Of a DNA stretch of 64,000 bases, positions 631 through 10,956 are shown one piece after another. The position numbers and the translations under genes are program-made. How positions within the stretch are numbered: position 1 is the stretch's first letter; every line of letters starts with the position of its first letter. A model generated the notes under the pieces. The model was not told the origin of the DNA. It saw nothing but the letters and a program-made list of their open reading frames with translations, and searched no databases. Source of the DNA: Streptomyces taklimakanensis (GTDB lineage: Bacteria; Actinomycetota; Actinomycetes; Streptomycetales; Streptomycetaceae); assembly GCF_009709575.1 (NCBI RefSeq), contig NZ_WIXO01000001.1, positions 3,970,001 through 4,034,000 on the forward strand, written 5' to 3'.

Positions 631-2031
631 TCAGGCCGAGGTCTCGGCCGGCTCGGCGCCACCGTCGAAGTCCGCGTCCGCCCCGGCCTCCTCCTCCGGA
701 ACGAAGCCCGGCACCCAGGCCTCCATTTCATCGCGCATCCGGACCCGCGCGTTGAGCTGGCACAGCACCCCGATCGTGGAGAGCGTCACCCGGTGGATCA
801 GCAGGTAGGACGGTGGCAGGTTGAGCCGCTTGCCCAACTGGTACGCGGGAGAACGAGGATCCCCCACTCGGGTCGCCTGTCCCCGCATCCAGTCACGGGA
901 GAAGACGAACTCCTCCACCTGTGCCGGCTCGATGATGGGCACGAGGTACTCCAGCACCCCCTCCGGGTCCAGTTCGACCGTCGGCCTGACGAAGCCCTCC
1001 TCGCACAGCAGCTCGTACACGGACTCCGCGTCGCCGTCGAGGGCCATTCGCAGCGCCGTGCCGATCGTCGGAGGCAATCCGCCCGGCAGCCGGTCGACCG
1101 TGCCGAAGTCCATCACGCCCAGCCGCCACCGCTCCGGCGGGCCGTCGGGGTCACCATCGGTCAGCAGCCGGAAGTTCCCCGGGTGCGGATCGGCGTGCAG
1201 CAGGCCCGTGCGGGCCGTGCCGGAGAAGAGGAAACGCGCCAGCAACTGTCCGGCCCGATCGCGCTCCTCGTCCGTGCCGTCCTTGATCACCTCCGCGAGC
1301 GGCACTCCCTCCAGCCACTCGGTGATCAGCACCTGGTCGCACTGGTACACCACGTCCGGCACCCGTACGTCCGGGTCGTCGGCGAACTCCGCGGCGTACG
1401 TCCGCTGGGCGTCCGCCTCCAGTTCGTAGTCGAGTTCCTCACTGATCCGGTCACGCAGCTCCGACACCAGCGGCTTGAAGTCCATGCCCGGGACGAGCGG
1501 CCCCAGAAGTCGGACGAAGCGTCCCAACTGGTTCAAGTCCGACAGCAGTGCCTCGCCGGCGCCCGGGTACTGCACCTTCACCGCCACCGGACGGCCGTCG
1601 TGCCAGACGCCGCGGTGCACCTGGCCTATCGAGGCCGCCGCCGAGGGCTTGTCGTCGAACTCCTCGAACAGCTCCCGCCAGTCCTCGCCCATCCGCTCGG
1701 CCAGCGCGGCGTGCACGGAGGCCACGGGCATCGGCGGTGCCGCGTCCTGGAGTCTGGTCAGCGCCGCCCGGTAGGGGCCGGCCACCTCCTCGGGGAGCGC
1801 CGACTCGAAGACCGACAGCACCTGGCCGAACTTCATGGCACCCCCCTTCAGCTCTCCCAGGACCTTGAAGAGCTGCTCGGCGGTGCGCTGCTGCATCTCC
1901 TGGCCGACCAGCTCCGCGGAGTACCCCCCGATGCGCTTGCCCAGCCCCCAGGTCGCGCGTCCCGCCACACCCAGCGGCAGCGCGGCCAGCTTGGCGGTAC
2001 GTGTGACGGCCTTACGCGGAAGATCCGACAT
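631..2031 (-). CDS. ABC1/AarF/UbiB-family atypical kinase
   Basis: A 466-residue ABC1-family protein. Family marks in order are the KxGQ-type helix (KGGAMKFGQ, about residue 62), the alanine-rich loop replacing the glycine-rich loop (AAASIGQVH, about 130), the VAVKVQYPG lysine strand, the catalytic segment HADPHPGNF and the metal-binding DFGTVDR. These proteins bind ATP atypically and in other systems support quinone or lipid metabolism; in streptomycetes the substrate is unknown. The start MSDLPRK follows GGAGGGG closely; an ATG 12 bases upstream is possible. It lies directly downstream of, and in the same direction as, the ThiF-like gene. Confidence 0.9.
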   Translation of the reverse strand: MSDLPRKAVTRTAKLAALPLGVAGRATWGLGKRIGGYSAELVGQEMQQRTAEQLFKVLGELKGGAMKFGQVLSVFESALPEEVAGPYRAALTRLQDAAPPMPVASVHAALAERMGEDWRELFEEFDDKPSAAASIGQVHRGVWHDGRPVAVKVQYPGAGEALLSDLNQLGRFVRLLGPLVPGMDFKPLVSELRDRISEELDYELEADAQRTYAAEFADDPDVRVPDVVYQCDQVLITEWLEGVPLAEVIKDGTDEERDRAGQLLARFLFSGTARTGLLHADPHPGNFRLLTDGDPDGPPERWRLGVMDFGTVDRLPGGLPPTIGTALRMALDGDAESVYELLCEEGFVRPTVELDPEGVLEYLVPIIEPAQVEEFVFSRDWMRGQATRVGDPRSPAYQLGKRLNLPPSYLLIHRVTLSTIGVLCQLNARVRMRDEMEAWVPGFVPEEEAGADADFDGGAEPAETSA

Positions 2032-2085
2032 GTGCCCCTCCATCTTCCCGACAGCACGACCGGGTGGCAGCGCCGAGAACAGCGG

Positions 2086-3201
2086 TCATGTCGCCATTGT
2101 GGACCTCCGGACCCCGTCCGCCGAGAGCGGGCGGCCGCCGTGCACGGAAGCGGCACCGCACGGACACTCCACGTGCGGCGACACCGGCTCCGACTCGGCG
2201 CGCAACTCCGGCAGCACCCAGGACCGGCGCGCACCCGTGACGCAGCCCTCGTCACCGTCCAGGAAGGTCAACGCGCAGGAGGCGGTCGCACCCGCGACCA
2301 GGGTGGCCAGCGCCACGTCACAGGCCGGCACCGAGGTCCCCCGGGCCGATCGCCACTGGGCCACCACCAACGGCCAGCCGGGCTCCCGCTCCGCGCGCCC
2401 GAGCAACAGGCACTCCGCACACGCCGTCGCTCCCGGCAGCACCAGCGGCCCCACGAACCCGGTGCCCTCGACCACCCCGGCGTACAGATGCGGCACCCCG
2501 GTACCGACCAGCTCCGCGGACGCGACGGAATCCGGCGCGTAGGCGGCCAGTCCGTCCCGTGGCGCGACCACCACCAGACCGAGCCCCGGCTCGGGAGCCT
2601 CGGCGGACGGGCGCGACCGCCGGGGAGCGGGGGCCGCCCGCCGCACCGCCCGGCCGGCGGCCGCGGCCCGCCGCCGGCCGGTCTGTTCCGCCGGCACGCC
2701 TCCCGGAGCGGTGTCCCACGGGGCCACACAGCCGCCGTCCACCACGTCGACCTGCCCCACACCGGCCGCCGACAGCAGCGCGGCCACCGTCGCCCCGACC
2801 CGTCCCGCGCCGCGCACCTGCACCCGCGCCCCGGCCCGGGCGGCCAGCCTCCGCACTCCCCCGCCCGGTTCCGGATGGAGCACCGAGAGCGAGGCCAGAT
2901 CGGGACGGACCCGGTCCTCGACCCGGGCCGCGGCCCTCCGGTGCGCGGTGGCGTCGTCCAGGAGCCCCGCGGCCGTCAACCGCCCCACCAGTCTGTCGAC
3001 CACCTCCGCGCCGAGCCCCATCCCCTCCGCGGCCCGCCTGAGCTCGGGCAGGCCGCGAGTGCCGTCGAACAACTCCAGGAAGCTGCCGGTCGCGGTGTCC
3101 ACCGGCCCCAGCAACACCGCGTGCGCGGGCGTCACCCCGTACCGCAGGGTGTTCCGATCCCGCCAGGCGCGTCGCAGCGCCGGTTTGATCATCGGATGCA
3201 T
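2086..3201 (-). CDS. PqqD/ThiF-like (TOMM leader-binding type) protein
   Basis: A 371-residue protein with two parts. The N-terminal part (about 1-110) resembles a winged-helix PqqD-like or RiPP-recognition domain (FDGTRGLPEL, then VGRLTAAGLLDD). The C-terminal part resembles a ThiF/E1 fold with a degenerate nucleotide loop GAGRVG, the acidic strand VDVVDGG, and cysteine pairs CAEC and CPCG near the C-terminus that could bind zinc. Such proteins are often annotated as TOMM precursor leader peptide-binding protein. No precursor peptide, YcaO or dehydrogenase gene is nearby. The start MHPMIK was preferred to the longer open frame, whose extra N-terminus is low-complexity. It ends 55 bp before the ABC1 kinase. 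Confidence 0.75.
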   Translation of the reverse strand: MHPMIKPALRRAWRDRNTLRYGVTPAHAVLLGPVDTATGSFLELFDGTRGLPELRRAAEGMGLGAEVVDRLVGRLTAAGLLDDATAHRRAAARVEDRVRPDLASLSVLHPEPGGGVRRLAARAGARVQVRGAGRVGATVAALLSAAGVGQVDVVDGGCVAPWDTAPGGVPAEQTGRRRAAAAGRAVRRAAPAPRRSRPSAEAPEPGLGLVVVAPRDGLAAYAPDSVASAELVGTGVPHLYAGVVEGTGFVGPLVLPGATACAECLLLGRAEREPGWPLVVAQWRSARGTSVPACDVALATLVAGATASCALTFLDGDEGCVTGARRSWVLPELRAESEPVSPHVECPCGAASVHGGRPLSADGVRRSTMAT

Positions 3202-3443
3202 GTTCGTTCGACCCCCTGAGACCGCCGCCGGCATCGTCGCCGCCGGTTCCGGATCACCGACGGGCCCCAGCATGCGGCCCAGGGGGGCGCCGCCGCCGGG
3301 AGTTGTCCACAGGGCGCGCCGTTCGTCATACCGGGGTGTTCGGGAGCGTTCGAGGGCGTGCGGCCGCTCACCCGGACGGGCGTTTCCCCCGGAAGCACCC
3401 CTGGGACGGGACTTCCGGGGACGGCAGCGGGTAACGTCGTGGC

Positions 3444-4067
3444 GTGTCCGCCGACCCGCCGAGCAGCCCCGAGCCACCGCACCGCACCCCCGAGCCGAAC
3501 GGCGCGGGGGCGGACACGGCGGCACGCGGGCGGGAGGAGGCCGTCGAGGTCCGCCGGAGCGCACGTCGCCGGCGCACGGTCTCCGCCTACCGCGAGGGAG
3601 GCCGCACCATCGTCCTCATCCCGGCCCGGATGTCGAAGGACGAGGAGCGGCGCTGGGTGGACGTCATGCTGGACAAACTGGCCGCCCAGGAGAGCCGCAG
3701 GAAGCCCGACGACGGCGAACTGGCCGAGCGCGCGGCGCGGCTCTCCCGCCAGTACCTCCAGGGGCGCGCCCGCCCGATCACCGTGCGCTGGGTCACCAAC
3801 CAGAACACCCGCTGGGGCTCGTGCACCCCCGCCGAGGGCAGCATCCGTCTCTCGCACCGGTTGCAGGGCATGCCCGAGTACGTCGTGGACTACGTCCTCC
3901 TGCACGAGTTGGCGCACCTGTTGGTCCCCGGCCACGGGCCCCGTTTCTGGCGGCTGTTGGAGTCCTACCCGCGCACCGAGAGGGCCCGCGGCTTCCTGGA
4001 GGGCGTGGTCGCCGCCAACCGGCTTCCGAACGTTTCCGAGCCCGGAGCGAATGATCCGGACGGGTGA
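3444..4067 (+). CDS. YgjP-like (SprT/M48-type) metallopeptidase
   Basis: A 207-residue predicted zinc metallopeptidase. The first 45 residues are a low-complexity Pro/Arg-rich tail. The conserved core carries RWGSCTP (about residue 130), the zinc motif HELAH (about 153) and a third histidine in GHGPRFW, the layout of the YgjP/DUF45 family. No signal peptide is seen, so it should be cytosolic. The GTG start was chosen because no plausible downstream start leaves the domain intact. It is divergent from the ThiF-like gene and 56 bp upstream of the TerD fusion, in the same direction. Its substrate is unknown. Confidence 0.88.
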   Translation: MSADPPSSPEPPHRTPEPNGAGADTAARGREEAVEVRRSARRRRTVSAYREGGRTIVLIPARMSKDEERRWVDVMLDKLAAQESRRKPDDGELAERAARLSRQYLQGRARPITVRWVTNQNTRWGSCTPAEGSIRLSHRLQGMPEYVVDYVLLHELAHLLVPGHGPRFWRLLESYPRTERARGFLEGVVAANRLPNVSEPGANDPDG

Positions 4068-4123
4068 CCGGTTAGCCTGGCGCGACGACATCGACGCTAT
4101 GAACGGGGGACGGTCGGTTACGC

Positions 4124-5746
4124 ATGGCCAGAGAATTCCAACGCGGCCACAAGGCCAGGATCGGTGATCTCACCGCGGGGACGGATCTGTACGTGGGCGT
4201 GCGGATCTCGGCTCCGGGACTGAGCTTCGACATCAGCTGCTTCGGCCTCGACGCCGAGGAGCGGCTCTCCGACGATCGGTACTTCGTCTTCTTCAACCAG
4301 CCCCGGTCACCCGAGGAGGCCATCCAGCTCCTGGGCCCCCAGGCGGGCGACACCGAGTCCTTCAGGGTGACCCTGGAGCGCATTCCCCCGCACATCCGGA
4401 AGCTGTCGTTCACGGCGACGATCGACGGTGCCGGTCAGATGTCCCTGATCGACCCCGGCTACCTGCGGATCGTCGCCGGGGGCGAGGAGGTCGCGCGGTA
4501 CGCGTTCGACGGCTCGGAATTCACCTCCGAGCGGGCCGTGATGCTCGGCGACCTCTACCTGAAGGACGTCTGGCGCTTCGCCGCGGTCGGCCAGGGCTTC
4601 GACGGAGGTCTGGAGGCGCTGCTGAAGAACTTCGGCGGTGAGGTCGCCGAGGAGGAGGCCGCCCCCGAGCCGGCCCCGCAACCGGTGCCCGGTTTCGCGC
4701 CGCCCTCCGGACCGGCCCCCGGTTTCGCGCCTCCGGCGGCCCCCACCGCCCCGCAACCCGCACCGGCCCCGCAACCCGCCCCCCGACAACCGGTGCCGCC
4801 GCCCGCGCCGACGGCGCCCGTGCCGCCGCCCGCCCCGCCGCAGCCGGCCGCACCGCCTCCCCAGGGAGGCCACCCCCAAGCCCCCGCCCAGCCGGTTTCC
4901 CCCGACGCTCCCGCGCCCGCTCCGCCCCCGGTGCCCGCGGCACCCACCGCCCCCGGGCAGGTGATGCCCAACCCCTTCGGCGGGCCGCAGACGCAGCAGC
5001 CCTTCGGCGGGCAGCCCCCGCAGGCCCCCTTCGGCGGGCAGGTGCCCGGCCCTCCGGGTGCCCCCCGGGTGCCGCAGGGACCGGCCGCCGGGATCGGCGC
5101 GGCGTTGGAGAAGTACCGCGAGGCACCCACCGGGCAGCGTTGGACCCTGCAGAACCCGACGCTGGTGAGGGCCGACCTCTCCGGCGACGGCGGGCCCGTC
5201 CTCGCCCGCCAGGGCAGCATGGTGCTGTACCAGGGCAAGGTCGACTTCTCCTACAAGGGCGCGGGGCTCGCCGGCCGCATCGTCGGCAACGCCACCGGCC
5301 AGGAGATGCAGCTGATGCGGTGCAGCGGGCGCGGCCAGGTGTTCTTCGCCGAGAACGCCGCGCACGTGCACCCCATCGAACTCCAGGGCGACGCCGTCTG
5401 CGTCTCCGCCGACAACGTGCTCGCCTTCGACGAGAGCCTCCAGTACGAGGTCCGCCGGATCGAGGGCCACGGCATTCCCGGAGGAGCCCTGTTCACCCTG
5501 CAGTTCCAGGGCACCGGCACCGTCGTGGTCAAGACGCAGGGCCTCCCGGTCGTCCTGCCCGTCACACCGACCACCTTCGCCGACTGCCAGGCCGTCGTCG
5601 CCTGGTCCGCCGGCGCACAGGTGATCATCTCCAGCCAGGTGCGGCTGCGCCGCAACGCCTACCCCGGCCACAGCGGTGAGACCGTGAACCTCCAGTTCCG
5701 CGGCGCGCCCGGGAACTTCGTCGTCGTCCAGCCCTACGAGGTCTGA
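4124..5746 (+). CDS. TerD domain - Pro-rich linker - AIM24 domain fusion
   Basis: A 540-residue two-domain protein. Residues 1 to about 175 are a TerD domain, the calcium-binding tellurium-resistance/stress fold (SAPGLSFDIS, DDRYFVFFNQ, then DLYLKDVWRFAAVGQGF). Residues about 178-318 are a linker dominated by Pro, Ala and Gln with repeated FGG units (PFGGPQ, PFGGQ). Residues about 325-540 are an AIM24-type beta domain (LQNPTLVRADLSG, then LMRCSGRGQVFFAENA). AIM24 proteins are related to a mitochondrial biogenesis protein and their bacterial role is unclear. It heads a run with two further AIM24 genes, 11 and 16 bp apart, so all three are probably one transcript. Confidence 0.92.
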   Translation: MAREFQRGHKARIGDLTAGTDLYVGVRISAPGLSFDISCFGLDAEERLSDDRYFVFFNQPRSPEEAIQLLGPQAGDTESFRVTLERIPPHIRKLSFTATIDGAGQMSLIDPGYLRIVAGGEEVARYAFDGSEFTSERAVMLGDLYLKDVWRFAAVGQGFDGGLEALLKNFGGEVAEEEAAPEPAPQPVPGFAPPSGPAPGFAPPAAPTAPQPAPAPQPAPRQPVPPPAPTAPVPPPAPPQPAAPPPQGGHPQAPAQPVSPDAPAPAPPPVPAAPTAPGQVMPNPFGGPQTQQPFGGQPPQAPFGGQVPGPPGAPRVPQGPAAGIGAALEKYREAPTGQRWTLQNPTLVRADLSGDGGPVLARQGSMVLYQGKVDFSYKGAGLAGRIVGNATGQEMQLMRCSGRGQVFFAENAAHVHPIELQGDAVCVSADNVLAFDESLQYEVRRIEGHGIPGGALFTLQFQGTGTVVVKTQGLPVVLPVTPTTFADCQAVVAWSAGAQVIISSQVRLRRNAYPGHSGETVNLQFRGAPGNFVVVQPYEV

Positions 5747-5757
5747 GGGAGCCCGTC

Positions 5758-6441
5758 GTGAACCAGCCAGTGATCTCGGGCTACGCCCCGACCCCGCCCG
5801 CCGCCCGCATGGAGAATCACGGGGCGCACATGGTGAAGATCGCCATGGCCGGCGGCCAGGACGTCTTCGCCCGCACCGGGTCGATGATCGCCTACGAGGG
5901 CTTCGTCCAGTACGAGCCCAACCCGCCGGCCGTCCGCCAGCTGGCCTCCCAGTGGCTCACCGGCGAGGGCGCCCCGCTGATGAAGTGCAGCGGCGACGGA
6001 GTCCTCTACCTCGCCGACTACGGAGCCGACGTCGTCTGCCTCAACCTGGCCGACGAGGCGCTCTCGGTCAACGGGACCAACCTCCTCGCCTTCGACGCGC
6101 ACCTCCAGTGGGGCGTCGAGCGCGTCAAGGGGCTGGCGAAGTTCGCCGGTCAGGGCCTGTTCAACGTCGGGATCTCCGGTACCGGCTGGGTCGCCCTCAC
6201 CTCCCGCGGCACACCCGTCGTGGTGGACTGCGGACGCGGCGAGGACGAGACCTACGTCGATCCCGACGCCCTGGTCGCCTGGTCGTCCGGCCTGAAGGTC
6301 AAGAACAAGCGCACCATGAAGGCGAGCGCGCTGATCGGCCGCGGCAGCGGCGAGGCGTACCAGATCGCCTTCTCCGGCCAGGGCTTCGTCGTCGTCCAGC
6401 CCAGCGAGGACAGCGCCGACCGCCTGCGCGTCCGGGGTTGA
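5758..6441 (+). CDS. AIM24-family protein, copy 2
   Basis: A 227-residue protein made almost entirely of one AIM24 domain. It shares with its neighbours the segments RTGSMIAYEGFV, LMKCSGDGVLYLAD and a C-terminal FVVVQPSE. No signal peptide or membrane segment is visible. It starts at a GTG eleven bases after the TerD-AIM24 gene, behind a GAGGGAG ribosome site. The three adjacent proteins probably arose by duplication, and the first then gained the TerD domain. A joint assembly is plausible but is inference. Confidence 0.9.
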   Translation: MNQPVISGYAPTPPAARMENHGAHMVKIAMAGGQDVFARTGSMIAYEGFVQYEPNPPAVRQLASQWLTGEGAPLMKCSGDGVLYLADYGADVVCLNLADEALSVNGTNLLAFDAHLQWGVERVKGLAKFAGQGLFNVGISGTGWVALTSRGTPVVVDCGRGEDETYVDPDALVAWSSGLKVKNKRTMKASALIGRGSGEAYQIAFSGQGFVVVQPSEDSADRLRVRG

Positions 6442-6457
6442 GGGGGGAGTAAGAACC

Positions 6458-7198
6458 ATGCAGAGTCCGCTCTTCGGCCACACCGAGGTCCCCAGCCAGG
6501 ACCGCTACGCCCTGCAGAACCCGCAACTGCTGCGGGTCCGGCTCTCCGGCCACGACGACGTGCTCGCCCGGAAGGGCGCGATGGTCGCCTACCAGGGGCT
6601 GTTGGAGTTCGACGGCGAGTACGCCTCGCGCGGGCGCCGCCGCGGGCAGGCACGGGCCGGCGAGAACCTGGAGCTGATGCGGTGCTCCGGGGAGGGCACG
6701 GTCTACCTGGCCAACCTCGCCCAGTACGTCCACGTCATGGACGTGGAGCCGGAAGGTCTGACGGTCGACAGCTCCTACGTCCTGGCCCTGGACTCCTCCC
6801 TGCACTGGGAGGTGATCGCGGTGGACAGCCAGTTCGGCATCTCCGGATCCGGCGCGTACAACCTCAACATCACCGGCCAGGGCAAGGTCGCTCTGATGAC
6901 CTCCGGACAGCCGCTGGCCCTCCAGGTCACCCCGGACGGATACGTCAACGCCGACTCCGACGCGGTGGTGGCCTGGTCCGGTTCGCTGCGGGTGCAGATG
7001 CAGGCCCAGACCAGCTCCCAGAGCGTGTTCCGGCGGCGCGGCAGCACCGGGGAGGGCTGGGAGCTGAGCTTCATGGGCCGGGGGTACGCCCTCGTCCAGC
7101 CCAGCGAGCTGCTGCCGCCGCAGAACGCGGTGATCCAGGGGCTGCGGGGCCAGTACGGCGCGGGCGGTCAGAACCAGGGCAACATCTGGAGCAACTGA
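6458..7198 (+). CDS. AIM24-family protein, copy 3
   Basis: A 246-residue AIM24-domain protein, the last of three consecutive AIM24 genes. The segments LQNPQLLRVRLSG, KGAMVAYQGLLEF, LMRCSGEGTVYLAN and YALVQPSE match the C-terminal domain of the TerD fusion more closely than copy 2 does. The ATG follows GAGGGGGGAGT with suitable spacing. The tail after the domain is Gln/Gly/Asn rich (GAGGQNQGNIWSN). A short GC-rich hairpin follows the stop, so the operon probably ends here. Confidence 0.9.
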   Translation: MQSPLFGHTEVPSQDRYALQNPQLLRVRLSGHDDVLARKGAMVAYQGLLEFDGEYASRGRRRGQARAGENLELMRCSGEGTVYLANLAQYVHVMDVEPEGLTVDSSYVLALDSSLHWEVIAVDSQFGISGSGAYNLNITGQGKVALMTSGQPLALQVTPDGYVNADSDAVVAWSGSLRVQMQAQTSSQSVFRRRGSTGEGWELSFMGRGYALVQPSELLPPQNAVIQGLRGQYGAGGQNQGNIWSN

Positions 7199-7202
7199 CC
7201 GA

Positions 7203-7227
7203 GGCGCGCGGACCGTGCCCGCGCGCC
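7203..7227. terminator. Hairpin between convergent AIM24 and Nudix genes
   Basis: Arms GGCGCGCGG and CCGCGCGCC, 9 bp with a 7-nt loop, just after the AIM24 stop and just beyond the end of the oppositely oriented Nudix gene. There is no U-tract, which is usual for this GC content. Confidence 0.5.
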
Positions 7228-7232
7228 CTGCC

Positions 7233-7760
7233 TCACAGCAGCGCGCGGGTACGGTCCACCAGCCGCACGACGGTGGCGTCGGCCACCGACGCCACCTCGT
7301 CGTAGGGGAACCAGCGCAGTTCCAGCGACTCCTCGCCGGCCGTCTCCACCGCGCCCTCCGGCGCCAGGGCGACGTACTGCACGTCCAGGTGCCAGGCGCA
7401 GGGCGTGTGGTGTCGGTCCAGCCGCACGGGACCGTCCGGCAGCAGGGTGAGCCCGGTGATGCCCGACTCCTCGACGGCCTCTCGCAGGGCGACCCCGGCG
7501 AGCGTGGCGTCGGCCGGTTCGCAGTGCCCGCCGGTCTGGAGCCACATCCGCAGTTTGCGGTGGTGGGTGAGCAGCACCCGTCCGCGGCGCGGCTCCACCA
7601 CGAGCGCGCTCGCCGTGATGTGGCCGTCCGCGCACGAGCGCCACACCCCGTCGGGGTGGGCGGCCAGGTGGTCGCCGTAGGCCAGGCGCAGCGCCTCCTG
7701 CTCCTCGTCCGGCGCGGACCACTCCTTGAGGACCCGCACCGTGTCCGCGTGCAGGCTCAC
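7233..7760 (-). CDS. Nudix hydrolase
   Basis: A 175-residue Nudix protein. The Nudix box runs from GGHCEP to REAVEESGI. It is one residue longer than the textbook spacing and the first acidic position appears as Asp, yet the REXXEE core that holds the metal is intact. The family cleaves nucleoside-diphosphate-linked substrates; the specific substrate cannot be read from the sequence. The GTG start overlaps the TGA of the upstream metalloprotease gene (GTGA), so the two are probably translationally coupled. A much longer upstream frame exists but overlaps the coding sequence of that neighbour and was rejected. Confidence 0.9.
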   Translation of the reverse strand: MSLHADTVRVLKEWSAPDEEQEALRLAYGDHLAAHPDGVWRSCADGHITASALVVEPRRGRVLLTHHRKLRMWLQTGGHCEPADATLAGVALREAVEESGITGLTLLPDGPVRLDRHHTPCAWHLDVQYVALAPEGAVETAGEESLELRWFPYDEVASVADATVVRLVDRTRALL

Positions 7761-9160
7761 CGGTCGTCTCCGCCGGCCCCGCCGTCCCCGCTCTCGCCAC
7801 GGTCGTCCTTGCCGTCCTCGCGCAACAGCCCCTCCAACTCGGAGAAGTCCAACTGCTCGCGGTGGACGAAACCGTCCGGGTCGTCGAGGTCGTCGGCGGT
7901 CGGAAGCATGTCCGGGTGGGCCCACAGCCCGTCGCGGCCGTCCAACCCGCGGGCGTCGGTGAGGGAGGCCCACAGTCGGGAGGCGTCGCGCAGGCGTCGG
8001 GGCCGCAACTCCAGGCCGATCAGCGTGGCGAAGGTCTGCTCGGCCGGTCCGCCACCGGCCCGCCGCCTGCGCAGCGTCTCGCGCAGCGCGGAAGCGGACG
8101 GCAGGTGTGGCTCGGCCGCGGCGTGCACCACCGCGTCCACCCAGCCCTCGACCAGCGCGAGCGCCGTCTCCAGCCGGGCCAGGGCCGCCTTCTGTTCGGG
8201 AGTGTCCTCCGGCTGGAACATGCCCTGCTGGAGCGCCTCCTGGAGTTCCTCGGGGCGGGACGGGTCGAGCTGTCCGACGACGTCCTCCAGCTTGGCGGTG
8301 TCCACCTTGATCCCGCGCGCGTACCCCTCGACCGCGCCGAACAGGTGCGAGCGCAGCCACGGCACGTGGGCGAACAGCCGCTGGTGCGCCGCCTCGCGCA
8401 GCGCGAGGTACAGCCGCACCTCGTCCTCGGGAACGCCCAGCCCCTCGCCGAAGGCCGCGATGTTGACCGGCAGCAGCGCCGCCCTGCCCTTCGGACCCAG
8501 CGGCAGACCGATGTCGGTGGAGCCCACGACCTCGCCGGCCAGTACGCCCAGTGCCCGGCCGATCTGGGTGCCGAACATCGCGCCGCCCATGGAGCGCATC
8601 ATCCCGATCAGCGGGCCCGCCATGGACTGCATCTCCTCGGGAAGCACGTCGCCCATGGCCGCCCCGACGCGTTCGGCGACCGGATCCACCAGGTCCTTCC
8701 ACACCGGAAGGGTGGACTCCACCCACTCCGCGCGGCTCCAGGCCACGGCCGAGCCGGACCCGGAGGGCAGGGAGGTCACGCCGTCCAGCCAGAGATCGGC
8801 CAGTCGCACGGCCTCCTCGACGGCCCGCCGCTCCCGGGGGCCGACGCTGGCGTCCTTGGTGCCGTCCGGGGTGCCCGCGGCGACGGTCTGTCGGGCGATG
8901 TCCTTGGCCATGTCCCAGTTGACCGGCCCGCCCTCGTAGCTGAGCATCTGGCCGAGCCGCTGGAACGCGGCGCCCAGGTCGTTCGGGTCGACGCCGCCGG
9001 GGCCGCCCAGCGACCCGAACATCGCCGCGAACGGGTTCTCGGCGCCGCCCTGGCCGCCGAACCCGAACGGGTTCGGGTCGGGTCCGCCCTTCTTCCGGCC
9101 GTCGTCGCCCTCCTCCGGCTCCTCGGGTGGAAGGCCGAATCCGAATGGGATGTCACTCAC
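7757..9160 (-). CDS. DUF2342-family zinc-dependent metalloprotease/hydrolase
   Basis: A 467-residue actinobacterial protein of the DUF2342 family, often named zinc-dependent metalloprotease or putative hydrolase. The N-terminus is Gly/Pro/Phe rich with repeated NPFGFG-like units. The long helical core contains the candidate metal segment LREAAHQRLFAH (about residue 245), followed by a tight Gly/Ala region. The C-terminal segment ends in acidic low complexity. No signal peptide. Function is unproven in streptomycetes. It is coupled to the Nudix gene downstream and divergent from the SDR gene, with about 150 bp between them. Confidence 0.87.
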   Translation of the reverse strand: MSDIPFGFGLPPEEPEEGDDGRKKGGPDPNPFGFGGQGGAENPFAAMFGSLGGPGGVDPNDLGAAFQRLGQMLSYEGGPVNWDMAKDIARQTVAAGTPDGTKDASVGPRERRAVEEAVRLADLWLDGVTSLPSGSGSAVAWSRAEWVESTLPVWKDLVDPVAERVGAAMGDVLPEEMQSMAGPLIGMMRSMGGAMFGTQIGRALGVLAGEVVGSTDIGLPLGPKGRAALLPVNIAAFGEGLGVPEDEVRLYLALREAAHQRLFAHVPWLRSHLFGAVEGYARGIKVDTAKLEDVVGQLDPSRPEELQEALQQGMFQPEDTPEQKAALARLETALALVEGWVDAVVHAAAEPHLPSASALRETLRRRRAGGGPAEQTFATLIGLELRPRRLRDASRLWASLTDARGLDGRDGLWAHPDMLPTADDLDDPDGFVHREQLDFSELEGLLREDGKDDRGESGDGGAGGDDR

Positions 9161-9311
9161 GGGGTTCCTCGGATCTGGTGGCTGGTGGGTGGGTCGCTGG
9201 GACGACGGTGGAGGATGTGCGAAGTGGAGGGCTTCACCTCCAGCCTAGACACCTCTCGGGCAGGATGGAGCCTGCGCACGTCGTACCCGAGACAACCGCG
9301 GGAGACACCGG

Positions 9312-10421
9312 GTGAGTTCCCAGGAGGCCAACGTTCGCGGTCCGCGTAACGGGACCGCACGGCCCGTCGTCGCGGTCACCGGAGCCGCATCGGGGGTGGG
9401 CGCGCTGCTGACCGAGCGGCTCGTGGCCTCCCCCGAGGTGGGACGGGTGATCGCGCTCGACGAGCGACGCGGCGACGCGGAGGGTGCCCAGTGGCACGTC
9501 CTGGACGTGCGGGACCCGGCCATCGCCGACCGGCTGCGCGACGCCGGCCGGCCGGCCGACACCGTGGTGCACCTCGCCCTCGACCTGGATCTGGAGACCG
9601 ATCCCGCCGCCCGCTCCGCCTACAACGTGCGCGGCACCCAGACGGTGCTGACGGCCGCCGCCGCCGCGGGCGTGCGGCGGGTGGTGCTGTGCACCTCGGC
9701 GATGGTCTACGGCGCGTTGCCCGACAACGACGTACCGCTGGCCGAGGACGCCGAGCTGCGGGCGACGGCCGAGGCCACGGGCGTGGGCGATCTGCTGGAG
9801 ATCGAGCGGCTCGCCAAGCGCGCCCCCCGCGCGCACCCGGGGCTCAACGTCACGGTCGTGCGCCCCACCGTCCTGGTCGGCGGCACGGACACGGCCCTGA
9901 CCCGTTACTTCGAGTCGCCGCGCCTGCTGGTCGTGGCCGGGTCCCGGCCGTGCTGGCAGTTCTGCCACGTCGAGGATCTGGCCGCCGCCCTGGAGTACGC
10001 GGCGCTGGAGAAGGTGGAGGGCGAGCTGGCGGTCGGTTGCGACGGCTGGCTGGAACAGGAGGAGGTGGAGGAGCTGTCCGGCATCCGCCGCATGGAGCTG
10101 CCCTCCGCGGTCGCCCTCGGCGCGGCCTCCCGACTGCACCGACTGGGGCTGACGCCCTCGCCCGCCGGTGACCTGGCGTACACGATGCACCCCTGGGTGG
10201 TCAGCGGCTCCCGGCTGCACGAGGCGGGCTGGCGGCCGACGTGGACCAACGAGGCGGTGCTGGGCGAGCTGCTGAAGGAGGTCGCCGGCCGGCACACGGT
10301 CGCCGGACGCCGCCTGGGGCGCAAGGACGCCACCACGCTCGGCGCCGCGGGCGCCACCGTCGCCCTGGTGGGCACCGCCGCCCTGGTCCGACGCGCCCGC
10401 AGGACCCGCCGTCGGATGTGA
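9312..10421 (+). CDS. SDR-family (NAD-dependent epimerase/dehydratase-like) protein
   Basis: A 369-residue Rossmann protein. The N-terminal dinucleotide motif is VTGAASGVGALL (about residues 22-33), with VLDVRD and VVHLALDLD following. After TSAMVYG, where an active extended SDR normally has YxxxK, the sequence reads VGDLLEIERLAKR. The catalytic Tyr-Lys pair therefore appears to be missing, which points to a binding or atypical role. The C-terminus (after about 340) has a short hydrophobic stretch, ATVALVGTAALV, and an Arg-rich end, possibly a membrane anchor. GTG start. Confidence 0.82.
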   Translation: MSSQEANVRGPRNGTARPVVAVTGAASGVGALLTERLVASPEVGRVIALDERRGDAEGAQWHVLDVRDPAIADRLRDAGRPADTVVHLALDLDLETDPAARSAYNVRGTQTVLTAAAAAGVRRVVLCTSAMVYGALPDNDVPLAEDAELRATAEATGVGDLLEIERLAKRAPRAHPGLNVTVVRPTVLVGGTDTALTRYFESPRLLVVAGSRPCWQFCHVEDLAAALEYAALEKVEGELAVGCDGWLEQEEVEELSGIRRMELPSAVALGAASRLHRLGLTPSPAGDLAYTMHPWVVSGSRLHEAGWRPTWTNEAVLGELLKEVAGRHTVAGRRLGRKDATTLGAAGATVALVGTAALVRRARRTRRRM

Positions 10422-10497
10422 CGTTCCACACACGGCGTCCCGTGCCGCGCCGCGCGGGTGGACGCGTCCGCCCGCGCCGGTACGGCACCATGTCCCC

Positions 10498-10956
10498 ATG
10501 GCACAGACGTACGACCATCCCGGTGAACGGGCCGCGCACGATCCGATCCGGCTGCTGGCGGTCCGTGAGGCCCCGCTCTCCGTGGACGAGGTCATGGCCG
10601 CCGTGCGTGACCCTTCGGCCGGTGGCACCGCGCTGTTCGTCGGCACCGTGCGCGACCACGACGGGGGCGTCGACGTGGCCCGACTGGGCTACTCCTCGCA
10701 CCCCACGGCGGAGGCCGAGCTGCGCCGCGTCGCCGAGAAGGTGGTCGCCGACTTCCCCGTGCGAGCGCTCGCCGCGGTCCACCGGGTGGGCGAGCTGGAA
10801 ATCGGCGATCCGGCCGTGGTCGTGGCCGTCTCCTGCGCGCACCGGGCCGAGGCCTTCGACGCCTGTCGCCGCCTGATCGACGACCTGAAGCACCAGGTGC
10901 CGATCTGGAAGCACCAGACCTTCGCGGACGGCACCGAGGAGTGGGTCGGGTCCTGA
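10498..10956 (+). CDS. moaE: Molybdopterin synthase large subunit MoaE
   Basis: A 152-residue MoaE, the catalytic subunit that with MoaD converts precursor Z (cPMP) to molybdopterin. It shows GTVRDHDGG, the AE-containing helix after the first strand pair, HRVGELEIGD, and the lysine-rich active-site end KHQVPIWKHQTFADG. Length and order are typical. No other molybdenum cofactor gene is present in the window, so it stands apart from the rest of its pathway. The gap to the upstream SDR gene is 76 bp, in the same direction. Confidence 0.94.
   Translation: MAQTYDHPGERAAHDPIRLLAVREAPLSVDEVMAAVRDPSAGGTALFVGTVRDHDGGVDVARLGYSSHPTAEAELRRVAEKVVADFPVRALAAVHRVGELEIGDPAVVVAVSCAHRAEAFDACRRLIDDLKHQVPIWKHQTFADGTEEWVGS

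What the first reader, a model, noticed from the sequence alone, without database searches (positions are those of the whole stretch)
4124..7198. TerD-AIM24 fusion followed by two more AIM24 genes
Three AIM24 domains are encoded in a row, 11 and 16 bp apart. The first is fused through a Pro/FGG-rich linker to a TerD domain. TerD proteins are calcium-binding stress proteins, and AIM24 in eukaryotes is linked to membrane organisation. A tandem of this kind suggests a multi-subunit assembly with a tethered calcium-responsive partner. The gene block itself is known in streptomycetes, but its function is, as far as I know, open.
Basis: partly seen in the sequence, partly recalled or inferred. Interest (0 to 1): 0.55.

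Follow-up and report, generated by a model that had tools for sequence, protein, structure and literature searches.

The report
Three-part AIM24 assembly tethered to TerD
A Streptomyces gene trio makes three different versions of one protein family, one of them leashed to a stress-system domain, and relatives keep or lose all three together, which suggests that they work as one machine rather than as three spare copies.

Summary
In detail: one TerD-AIM24 fusion and two AIM24 genes, 11 and 16 bp apart. The genome holds a second AIM24 trio. In 151 same-genus genomes, orthologues of genes 1, 2 and 3 each occur in 145, and the same six genomes lack all three. Genes group by position into six clades (A, B, C here; D, E, F in the second trio); two position-by-position pairings (A+D, B+E) are rejected, so the trios arose at least partly by separate duplications. 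Outside Streptomyces, the second trio lies within 17 kb of terD in 12 of 13 loci examined. Most likely the block encodes one hetero-oligomer, simplest a 1:1:1 ring in place of the homotrimer modelled for plant AIM24 proteins, with a TerD head on a long Pro-rich leash. The TerD-AIM24 link is in print; I did not find the all-or-none trio described in the papers searchable here. No direct evidence of interaction exists.

The parts
4124..5746 (+). Gene A: TerD-linker-AIM24 fusion, 540 aa
   Evidence: ORF; Pfam TerD + AIM24; clade A in the tree
4124..4633 (+). TerD domain, aa 1-170, of a subgroup without the canonical acidic motif
   Evidence: Pfam PF02342 E 6.3e-34; alignments to 3ibz and 2kxt and to other TerDs; motif counts
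4634..5158 (+). Pro-rich linker, aa 171-345, predicted without structure except one short helix (322-329)
   Evidence: low confidence and no other elements in the model; a 146-228 aa linker in 57 fusions
5159..5734 (+). AIM24 domain of subunit A, aa 346-537
   Evidence: Pfam PF01987 E 4.5e-25; model matches 1pg6 and 1yox
5758..6441 (+). Gene B: AIM24 subunit, 227 aa, GTG start
   Evidence: Pfam E 1.5e-37; model matches 1pg6 Z 18.1 and 1yox Z 17.8; clade B
6458..7198 (+). Gene C: AIM24 subunit, 246 aa, with a C-terminal tail ending GNIWSN
   Evidence: Pfam E 4.7e-30; clade C; tail comparison

Best explanation
The block is an operon for one hetero-oligomer made of three non-interchangeable AIM24 subunits (A, B, C), most simply a 1:1:1 ring that replaces the homotrimer modelled for plant AIM24 proteins. 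Subunit A carries, on a roughly 175-residue Pro-rich leash predicted to be unstructured, a TerD domain of a subgroup without the canonical acidic motif, so it more likely acts as a docking or ligand-binding head than as a classical calcium sensor. The module is an offshoot of the Ter stress system: a second trio (D, E, F) sits near terD genes in most other actinobacterial loci examined and is led directly by a TerD gene in Tsukamurella. Shown: gene order and spacing, all-or-none occurrence in one genus, two trios that are not position-by-position copies, fold, absence of the canonical motif. Inferred: operon transcription, physical assembly, 1:1:1 stoichiometry, scaffold role and role in the cell.
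For: A, B and C orthologues each in 145 of 151 same-genus genomes, absent together from the same 6. AIM24 counts per genome there are 0, 3, 4, 6, 7, 8 or 9, never 1, 2 or 5; the 24 low-count genomes inspected hold only whole trios plus 0 or 1 single. Six starred position clades from 107 domains; AU tests reject A+D (p 0.0004) and B+E (p 6e-8); D and E are sisters at 100/97. The block stays together while neighbours change: none of 8 window flank queries matches in the 11 f59 stretches. TerD link: the fusion itself; Tsukamurella TerD-D-E-F on one strand; 12 of 13 non-Streptomyces second trios examined lie within 17 kb of terD (no chance expectation was computed). A TerD 59% identical to the window's (E 2e-67), not fused to AIM24, lies in a ter cluster near a D-E-F-F set in a genome of the same phylum only. 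Homotrimer model for plant AIM24 proteins: PMC6677890, passages. Fold matches.
Against: No complex was predicted or measured; the structure tool folds single chains only. Joint loss of adjacent genes can come from one deletion without any dependence between the products, and the number of independent losses was not counted. Lone TerD-AIM24 fusions without B and C exist (L050, L052, Nocardia farcinica L176). One set has a fourth gene, a second F. The Streptomyces second trios examined for this (G000, G317, G320, G367) and G251 are not near any terD found. A single AIM24 gene (L057) is sister to clade B. F is very divergent, a long-branch risk; C+F was not tested. The acidic motif is also missing from 5 of 9 other TerD domains of this genome, so its absence is not special to the fusion. 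The TerD part of the fusion model is poor, about pLDDT 60.
Confidence: 0.55

Rival explanations
1. Tandem duplicates that form three separate homo-oligomers with overlapping or condition-specific roles; TerD became fused to one of them.
For: AIM24 proteins are often encoded alone (33 of 68 AIM24-positive genomes in the class sample have exactly one) and plant ones are modelled as homotrimers; lone TerD-AIM24 fusions exist.
Against: No partial set in 151 genomes; position clades shared by Streptomyces and a second family; threes reached in two trios that are not position-by-position copies.
Confidence: 0.25
2. One reading: an AIM24 assembly with a calcium-responsive TerD partner.
For: TerD domain present. 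Calcium binding of other TerD proteins is recalled; a calcium homeostasis role of the terD gene SCO2368 was seen only as a reference title.
Against: 0 of 57 fused TerDs carry the acidic GDN..GDDE motif or DxDAS; the same patterns find both in 4 of 9 other TerD domains of this genome and in 25 of 39 further TerDs.
Confidence: 0.12
3. A TerD-led conflict or anti-phage module with AIM24 as effector scaffold.
For: TerD has been listed as a possible sensor of nucleotide derivatives in conflict systems (PMC7159879, one passage).
Against: No PADLOC match for any of the three proteins; 145 of 151 genomes of the genus carry the block, whereas defence systems are usually patchy (recalled).
Confidence: 0.05

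Closest known systems
AIM24 family (PF01987; SpyM3_0169 1pg6, PA3696 1yox; yeast Aim24, plant PAWH1/2)
   Same: Domain and fold: Pfam hits above cut-off, VIA Z about 18
   Different: Often a single gene, plant ones modelled as homotrimers (PMC6677890, passages); here three fixed paralogues, one fused to TerD
TerD family (PF02342; 3ibz, 2kxt)
   Same: Pfam E 6e-34; sequence matches to 3ibz and 2kxt
   Different: Loop shortened and its acidic motif absent, DxDAS absent, joined through a Pro-rich linker to AIM24
Ter gene clusters with AIM24 (Anantharaman, Iyer and Aravind 2012, known to me only through passages of PMC5822837)
   Same: AIM24 genes near TerD genes; the second trio sits among ter genes on plasmids of Mycolicibacterium alvei and Tsukamurella tyrosinosolvens
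   Different: The window trio stands apart: no second TerD match within 500 kb, no ter-type protein among 7 flank proteins scanned, and TerD is covalently attached
Fungal EOP-1/IDC4 (PMC13075794, passages)
   Same: Pro/Gln-rich N-terminal part without defined structure, followed by an AIM24 domain
   Different: No TerD is mentioned in the passages seen; eukaryotic

Membership tests
AIM24 family | Significant match to PF01987 over nearly the whole profile | tested here: met
   All three domains above cut-off; profile positions 9, 4 and 8 to 204 of 205
AIM24 family | Fold of 1pg6/1yox | tested here: met
   Model of B: Foldseek E 2e-10 to 1pg6, VIA Z 18.1 over 203 residues, rmsd 5.4; next unrelated row Z 2.8
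AIM24 family | Trimeric assembly | not testable with these tools
   Single chains only; the homotrimer is a published model for plant members
TerD family | Match to PF02342 over the whole profile | tested here: met
   Positions 1-187 of 187, E 6e-34
Calcium-binding TerD | Acidic motif GDN..G.G.GDDE and DxDAS of canonical TerD (their role in calcium binding is recalled, from no call) | tested here: not met
   0 of 57 fusions and 0 of 19 in the tree set, window included; the same patterns find both motifs in 4 of 9 other own-genome TerD domains and 25 of 39 further ones
Calcium-binding TerD | Calcium binding by the protein | not testable with these tools
   Needs the purified domain
Ter gene cluster | Neighbouring terD, TerC/DUF475 and phosphoribosyltransferase genes | tested here: not met
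   7 flank proteins scanned, 634-10953, none of these types; no second TerD match within 500 kb. TerC was not searched in the rest of the genome. The second trio elsewhere does have such neighbours
Known anti-phage system | Match to PADLOC models | tested here: not met
   0 families at E 0.01 for 3 proteins

The most novel reading that the evidence does not exclude
Actinobacteria turned the homotrimeric AIM24 ring into an obligate heterotrimer at least twice, through partly independent duplications, both times coupled to TerD; in the window's lineage TerD became a leashed head of one subunit, giving an asymmetric scaffold of the Ter stress system without the acidic calcium motif.
Probability: 0.4. 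Interest if true: 0.68.

Novelty: new variant of a known kind. Interest (0 to 1): 0.52.

Why it matters
A 2019 paper states that nothing is known about the physiological function of any bacterial AIM24 protein (PMC6677890, passage). The trio gives a testable handle: an operon found in 145 of 151 genomes of the genus, a defined stoichiometry prediction, a built-in partner domain, and natural genomes that lack the whole set. If the heteromer is real, it links AIM24 proteins of mitochondria and the plant ER to the Ter stress system by composition rather than by analogy, and it tells experimenters to delete or purify the three genes together.

Tried and rejected
Calcium-responsive tether: rejected as the default reading because the fused TerDs lack the canonical motifs in 57 of 57 cases; a leftover or different site is not excluded, and 5 of 9 other TerD domains of this genome lack the acidic motif too.

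One ancestral trio duplicated as a block: A+D and B+E rejected; A+E was started and not finished; C+F not tested. treekit warned of long branches joining A with C and F with D+E, so I make no claim on A+C.

Defence system: no PADLOC match; PHROGs gave one family of unknown function, for the TerD part only. Phage records: gene B matched 1 of 50,697.

A two-gene AIM24 tandem in G158 looked like a counterexample; only one of its two domains matches any of the six subunit models, at 27 bits, so it is another AIM24 type. G265 seemed to lack C; its contig ends at 14680, just after B.

Fusion structure: AIM24 part confident, TerD part about 60 pLDDT, pTM 0.44, so no domain arrangement is claimed. Its PDB search listed only AIM24 structures at E below 0.001; that no TerD structure is listed there I put down to the poor TerD model. 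The third fold search and the viral library were not used.

Literature: PMC7046647 and PMC2954204 were false hits; PMC5069765 and PMC6009599 held TerD only in the reference list; PMC6393860 had one table line; Anantharaman 2012, Daigle 2015 and a 2023 plant AIM24 paper are not held. One search returned 4,526 papers for two of three terms, 8 listed, and says nothing about AIM24.

Full report
What is there. The three genes are present exactly as described: 4124-5746, 5758-6441, 6458-7198, all on the + strand, 11 and 16 bp apart. Pfam finds TerD (aa 1-170) and AIM24 (346-537) in the first and AIM24 in the other two, all above cut-off. I call the genes A, B, C. NCBIfam's TIGR00266 model is matched only below its cut-off.

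A second trio. The window's genome holds six AIM24 matches, not three: A, B, C and a second trio about 180 kb away on the other strand (C1:4154685-4156581), which I call D, E, F. The genome has ten TerD matches, the fusion included.

Position clades. I fetched stretches from unnamed relatives and extracted 107 AIM24 domains from 42 loci, the window included. The tree has six starred clades by gene position: A, B, C with 18 rows each, from 7 same-genus loci (window included) and 11 loci of a second family (f59); D and E with 14 each, and F with 15, from 14 loci (one locus has two F genes). Ten rows are single AIM24 genes outside these clades. AU tests reject A+D as one clade (p 0.00044) and B+E (p 6e-8). 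D and E are sisters at 100/97. So the trios are not position-by-position copies of one ancestral trio; at least the D/E split happened within the second. F is very divergent and treekit warned of long branches; C+F was not tested. A single gene from family f58 (L057) is sister to clade B.

All or none. In 151 same-genus genomes (at least 95% completeness asked for), AIM24 counts are 0 (2 genomes), 3 (4), 4 (5), 6 (16), 7 (92), 8 (31) and 9 (1). In the 24 low-count genomes inspected (all nine with 3 or 4, and 15 of the 16 with 6, the 16th being the window's own), all matches fall into whole trios plus 0 or 1 single: 15 have both trios, 5 have one trio and a single, 4 have one trio. Searches with A, B and C at E 1e-45 each match 145 of 151 genomes, and the same six (G280, G317, G320, G367, G373, G393) lack all three. 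B also gave one weaker second match, in G379, which lies at that genome's C gene. I compared the three coordinate lists row by row for 33 genomes, and A, B, C were adjacent in all 33; the other 112 I did not compare. Caveat: adjacent genes can be lost by one deletion, so this shows absence of partial sets, not dependence by itself.

Wider sampling. In the phylum sample 57 of 149 genomes have AIM24; in the class sample 68 of 138: 33 have one, 1 has two, 34 have three or more. Of the 34, I examined 33: 32 have a trio of one or the other type, and in G265 the contig ends after B; G239 was not examined. Among 80 named loci found with a B profile (the best 80 of 532 kept), 79 have A, B and C in order on one strand; the contig of L079 begins 12 bp before its B match. 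TerD and A are in one frame in 57; 20 contigs begin too late to show TerD; in L067 and L072 TerD and A lie in different frames.

The block moves as a unit. In the same genus the flanks are ABC1, ThiF, YgjP before and Nudix, Zincin_2, epimerase after in 6 of 7 loci; in L022 and in all 11 f59 loci none of the 8 flank queries matches within the stretch fetched, yet TerD-A, B, C stay together (L026 begins inside A, so its TerD is unseen).

TerD. The fused TerDs lack the acidic motif GDN..G.G.GDDE and DxDAS: 0 of 57, and 0 of 19 in the tree set, window included. The same patterns find both motifs in 4 of 9 other TerD domains of this genome and in 25 of 39 further TerDs, so the absence is a subgroup feature and not unique to the fusion. 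The match of the window's domain to 3ibz and 2kxt shows the loop shortened. That these residues bind calcium is recalled. In the TerD tree (quick method, SH-aLRT only) the 17 type I fused TerDs and one unfused TerD of G125 form a 99% clade, while the fused TerDs of L050, L052 and Nocardia farcinica (L176) fall in another. So TerD-AIM24 fusions probably arose twice.

Link of the second trio to Ter. Thirteen D-E-F loci outside the genus were examined for nearby terD: G049, G218, G197, N. farcinica, Tsukamurella tyrosinosolvens, M. alvei, G125, G245, G178, G207, G188 and G198 have terD within about 0.04 to 17 kb; G251 has none found on its contig. This is not a random sample and no chance expectation was computed. 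In Tsukamurella a 435-aa TerD gene ends 38 bp before D, on the same strand. In G125 the cluster holds three canonical-type TerDs, phosphoribosyltransferase- and HAD-like genes, a TerC-like gene and a TerD 59% identical to the window's, not fused to AIM24 (the enzyme and TerC labels are my reading of the sequences). Against this, the four same-genus second trios examined for it (G000, G317, G320, G367) are far from any terD found.

Structure. The model of B (pLDDT 72.6, alignment of A, B and C proteins) has 1pg6 and the six chains of 1yox as its only PDB matches at E below 0.001 (best E 2e-10 and 1e-9; VIA Z 18.1 and 17.8, next row 2.8). The fusion model has a confident AIM24 part, a poor TerD part and a linker with almost no structure. 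The six chains of 1yox would fit two trimers but prove nothing. A published model proposes a homotrimer with a flat surface for plant AIM24 proteins (PMC6677890, passages). Yeast Aim24 is described as a complex of about 400 kDa, predicted to be of the TRAP-like family (PMC3975624, passages).

Mechanism. The best reading is one assembly of three AIM24 subunits with a TerD head on a leash. It accounts for the number three in both trios, the position-specific divergence, the tight spacing, the joint occurrence and the repeated coupling to TerD. Steps shown and inferred are marked in the best explanation. The role in the cell is inferred: a scaffold of a stress response, from the Ter link and from eukaryotic AIM24 proteins.

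Known or new. That AIM24 is often encoded near TerD, and that the two proteins could interact, is in print (PMC5822837, passages, citing Anantharaman 2012, which is not held). I found no paper on the trio as an all-or-none set in searches (40 of 45 listed; 30 of 61 listed; 20 of 32 listed), 47, 84 and 88, of which I mostly saw listings; they cover open-licence PubMed Central papers only. PADLOC has no model for these proteins.

Noticed in passing
L063, L070, L073, L074, L078, L082 and 14 others of L058-L137: 20 of 80 named contigs begin 0.8 to 1.1 kb upstream of gene B, that is inside the Pro-rich linker of A, which seems to break draft assemblies; the fusion may therefore be under-annotated.
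   Followed up: partly
L067 and L072: TerD and AIM24 of gene A lie in different reading frames around the linker; sequencing error or real frameshift was not settled.
   Followed up: no
L024-L034, third gene; window 7103-7195: In family f59 subunit C has Gly-rich C-terminal tails (11 of 11), and Gly/Pro-rich N-terminal parts in the four loci printed; in the same-genus loci the tail of C has a Trp close to its end in 6 of 7. Possible docking motif or low-complexity tail.
   Followed up: no
L176 8176-9600: Nocardia farcinica has a lone TerD-Pro-rich-AIM24 fusion whose TerD belongs to another TerD group than the window's: a separate fusion with the same layout.
   Followed up: partly
L178 9001-18577, L179 213-11065: D-E-F trios with ter genes lie on plasmids of Mycolicibacterium alvei (304 kb) and Tsukamurella tyrosinosolvens (402 kb).
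   Followed up: partly
L130: A record titled Microtetraspora glauca carries a B gene 81% identical to the window's, among Streptomyces hits: mislabelled strain or transfer.
   Followed up: no
window 634-2043, - strand: ABC1-kinase gene whose best NCBIfam match is macrolide-binding ATPase MABP-1, below that model's cut-off.
   Followed up: no
L049 5733-6922: G125 has two F genes after D and E, so one set has four AIM24 genes.
   Followed up: partly
L181: G158 has two adjacent AIM24 genes that do not belong to the six subunit clades.
   Followed up: partly
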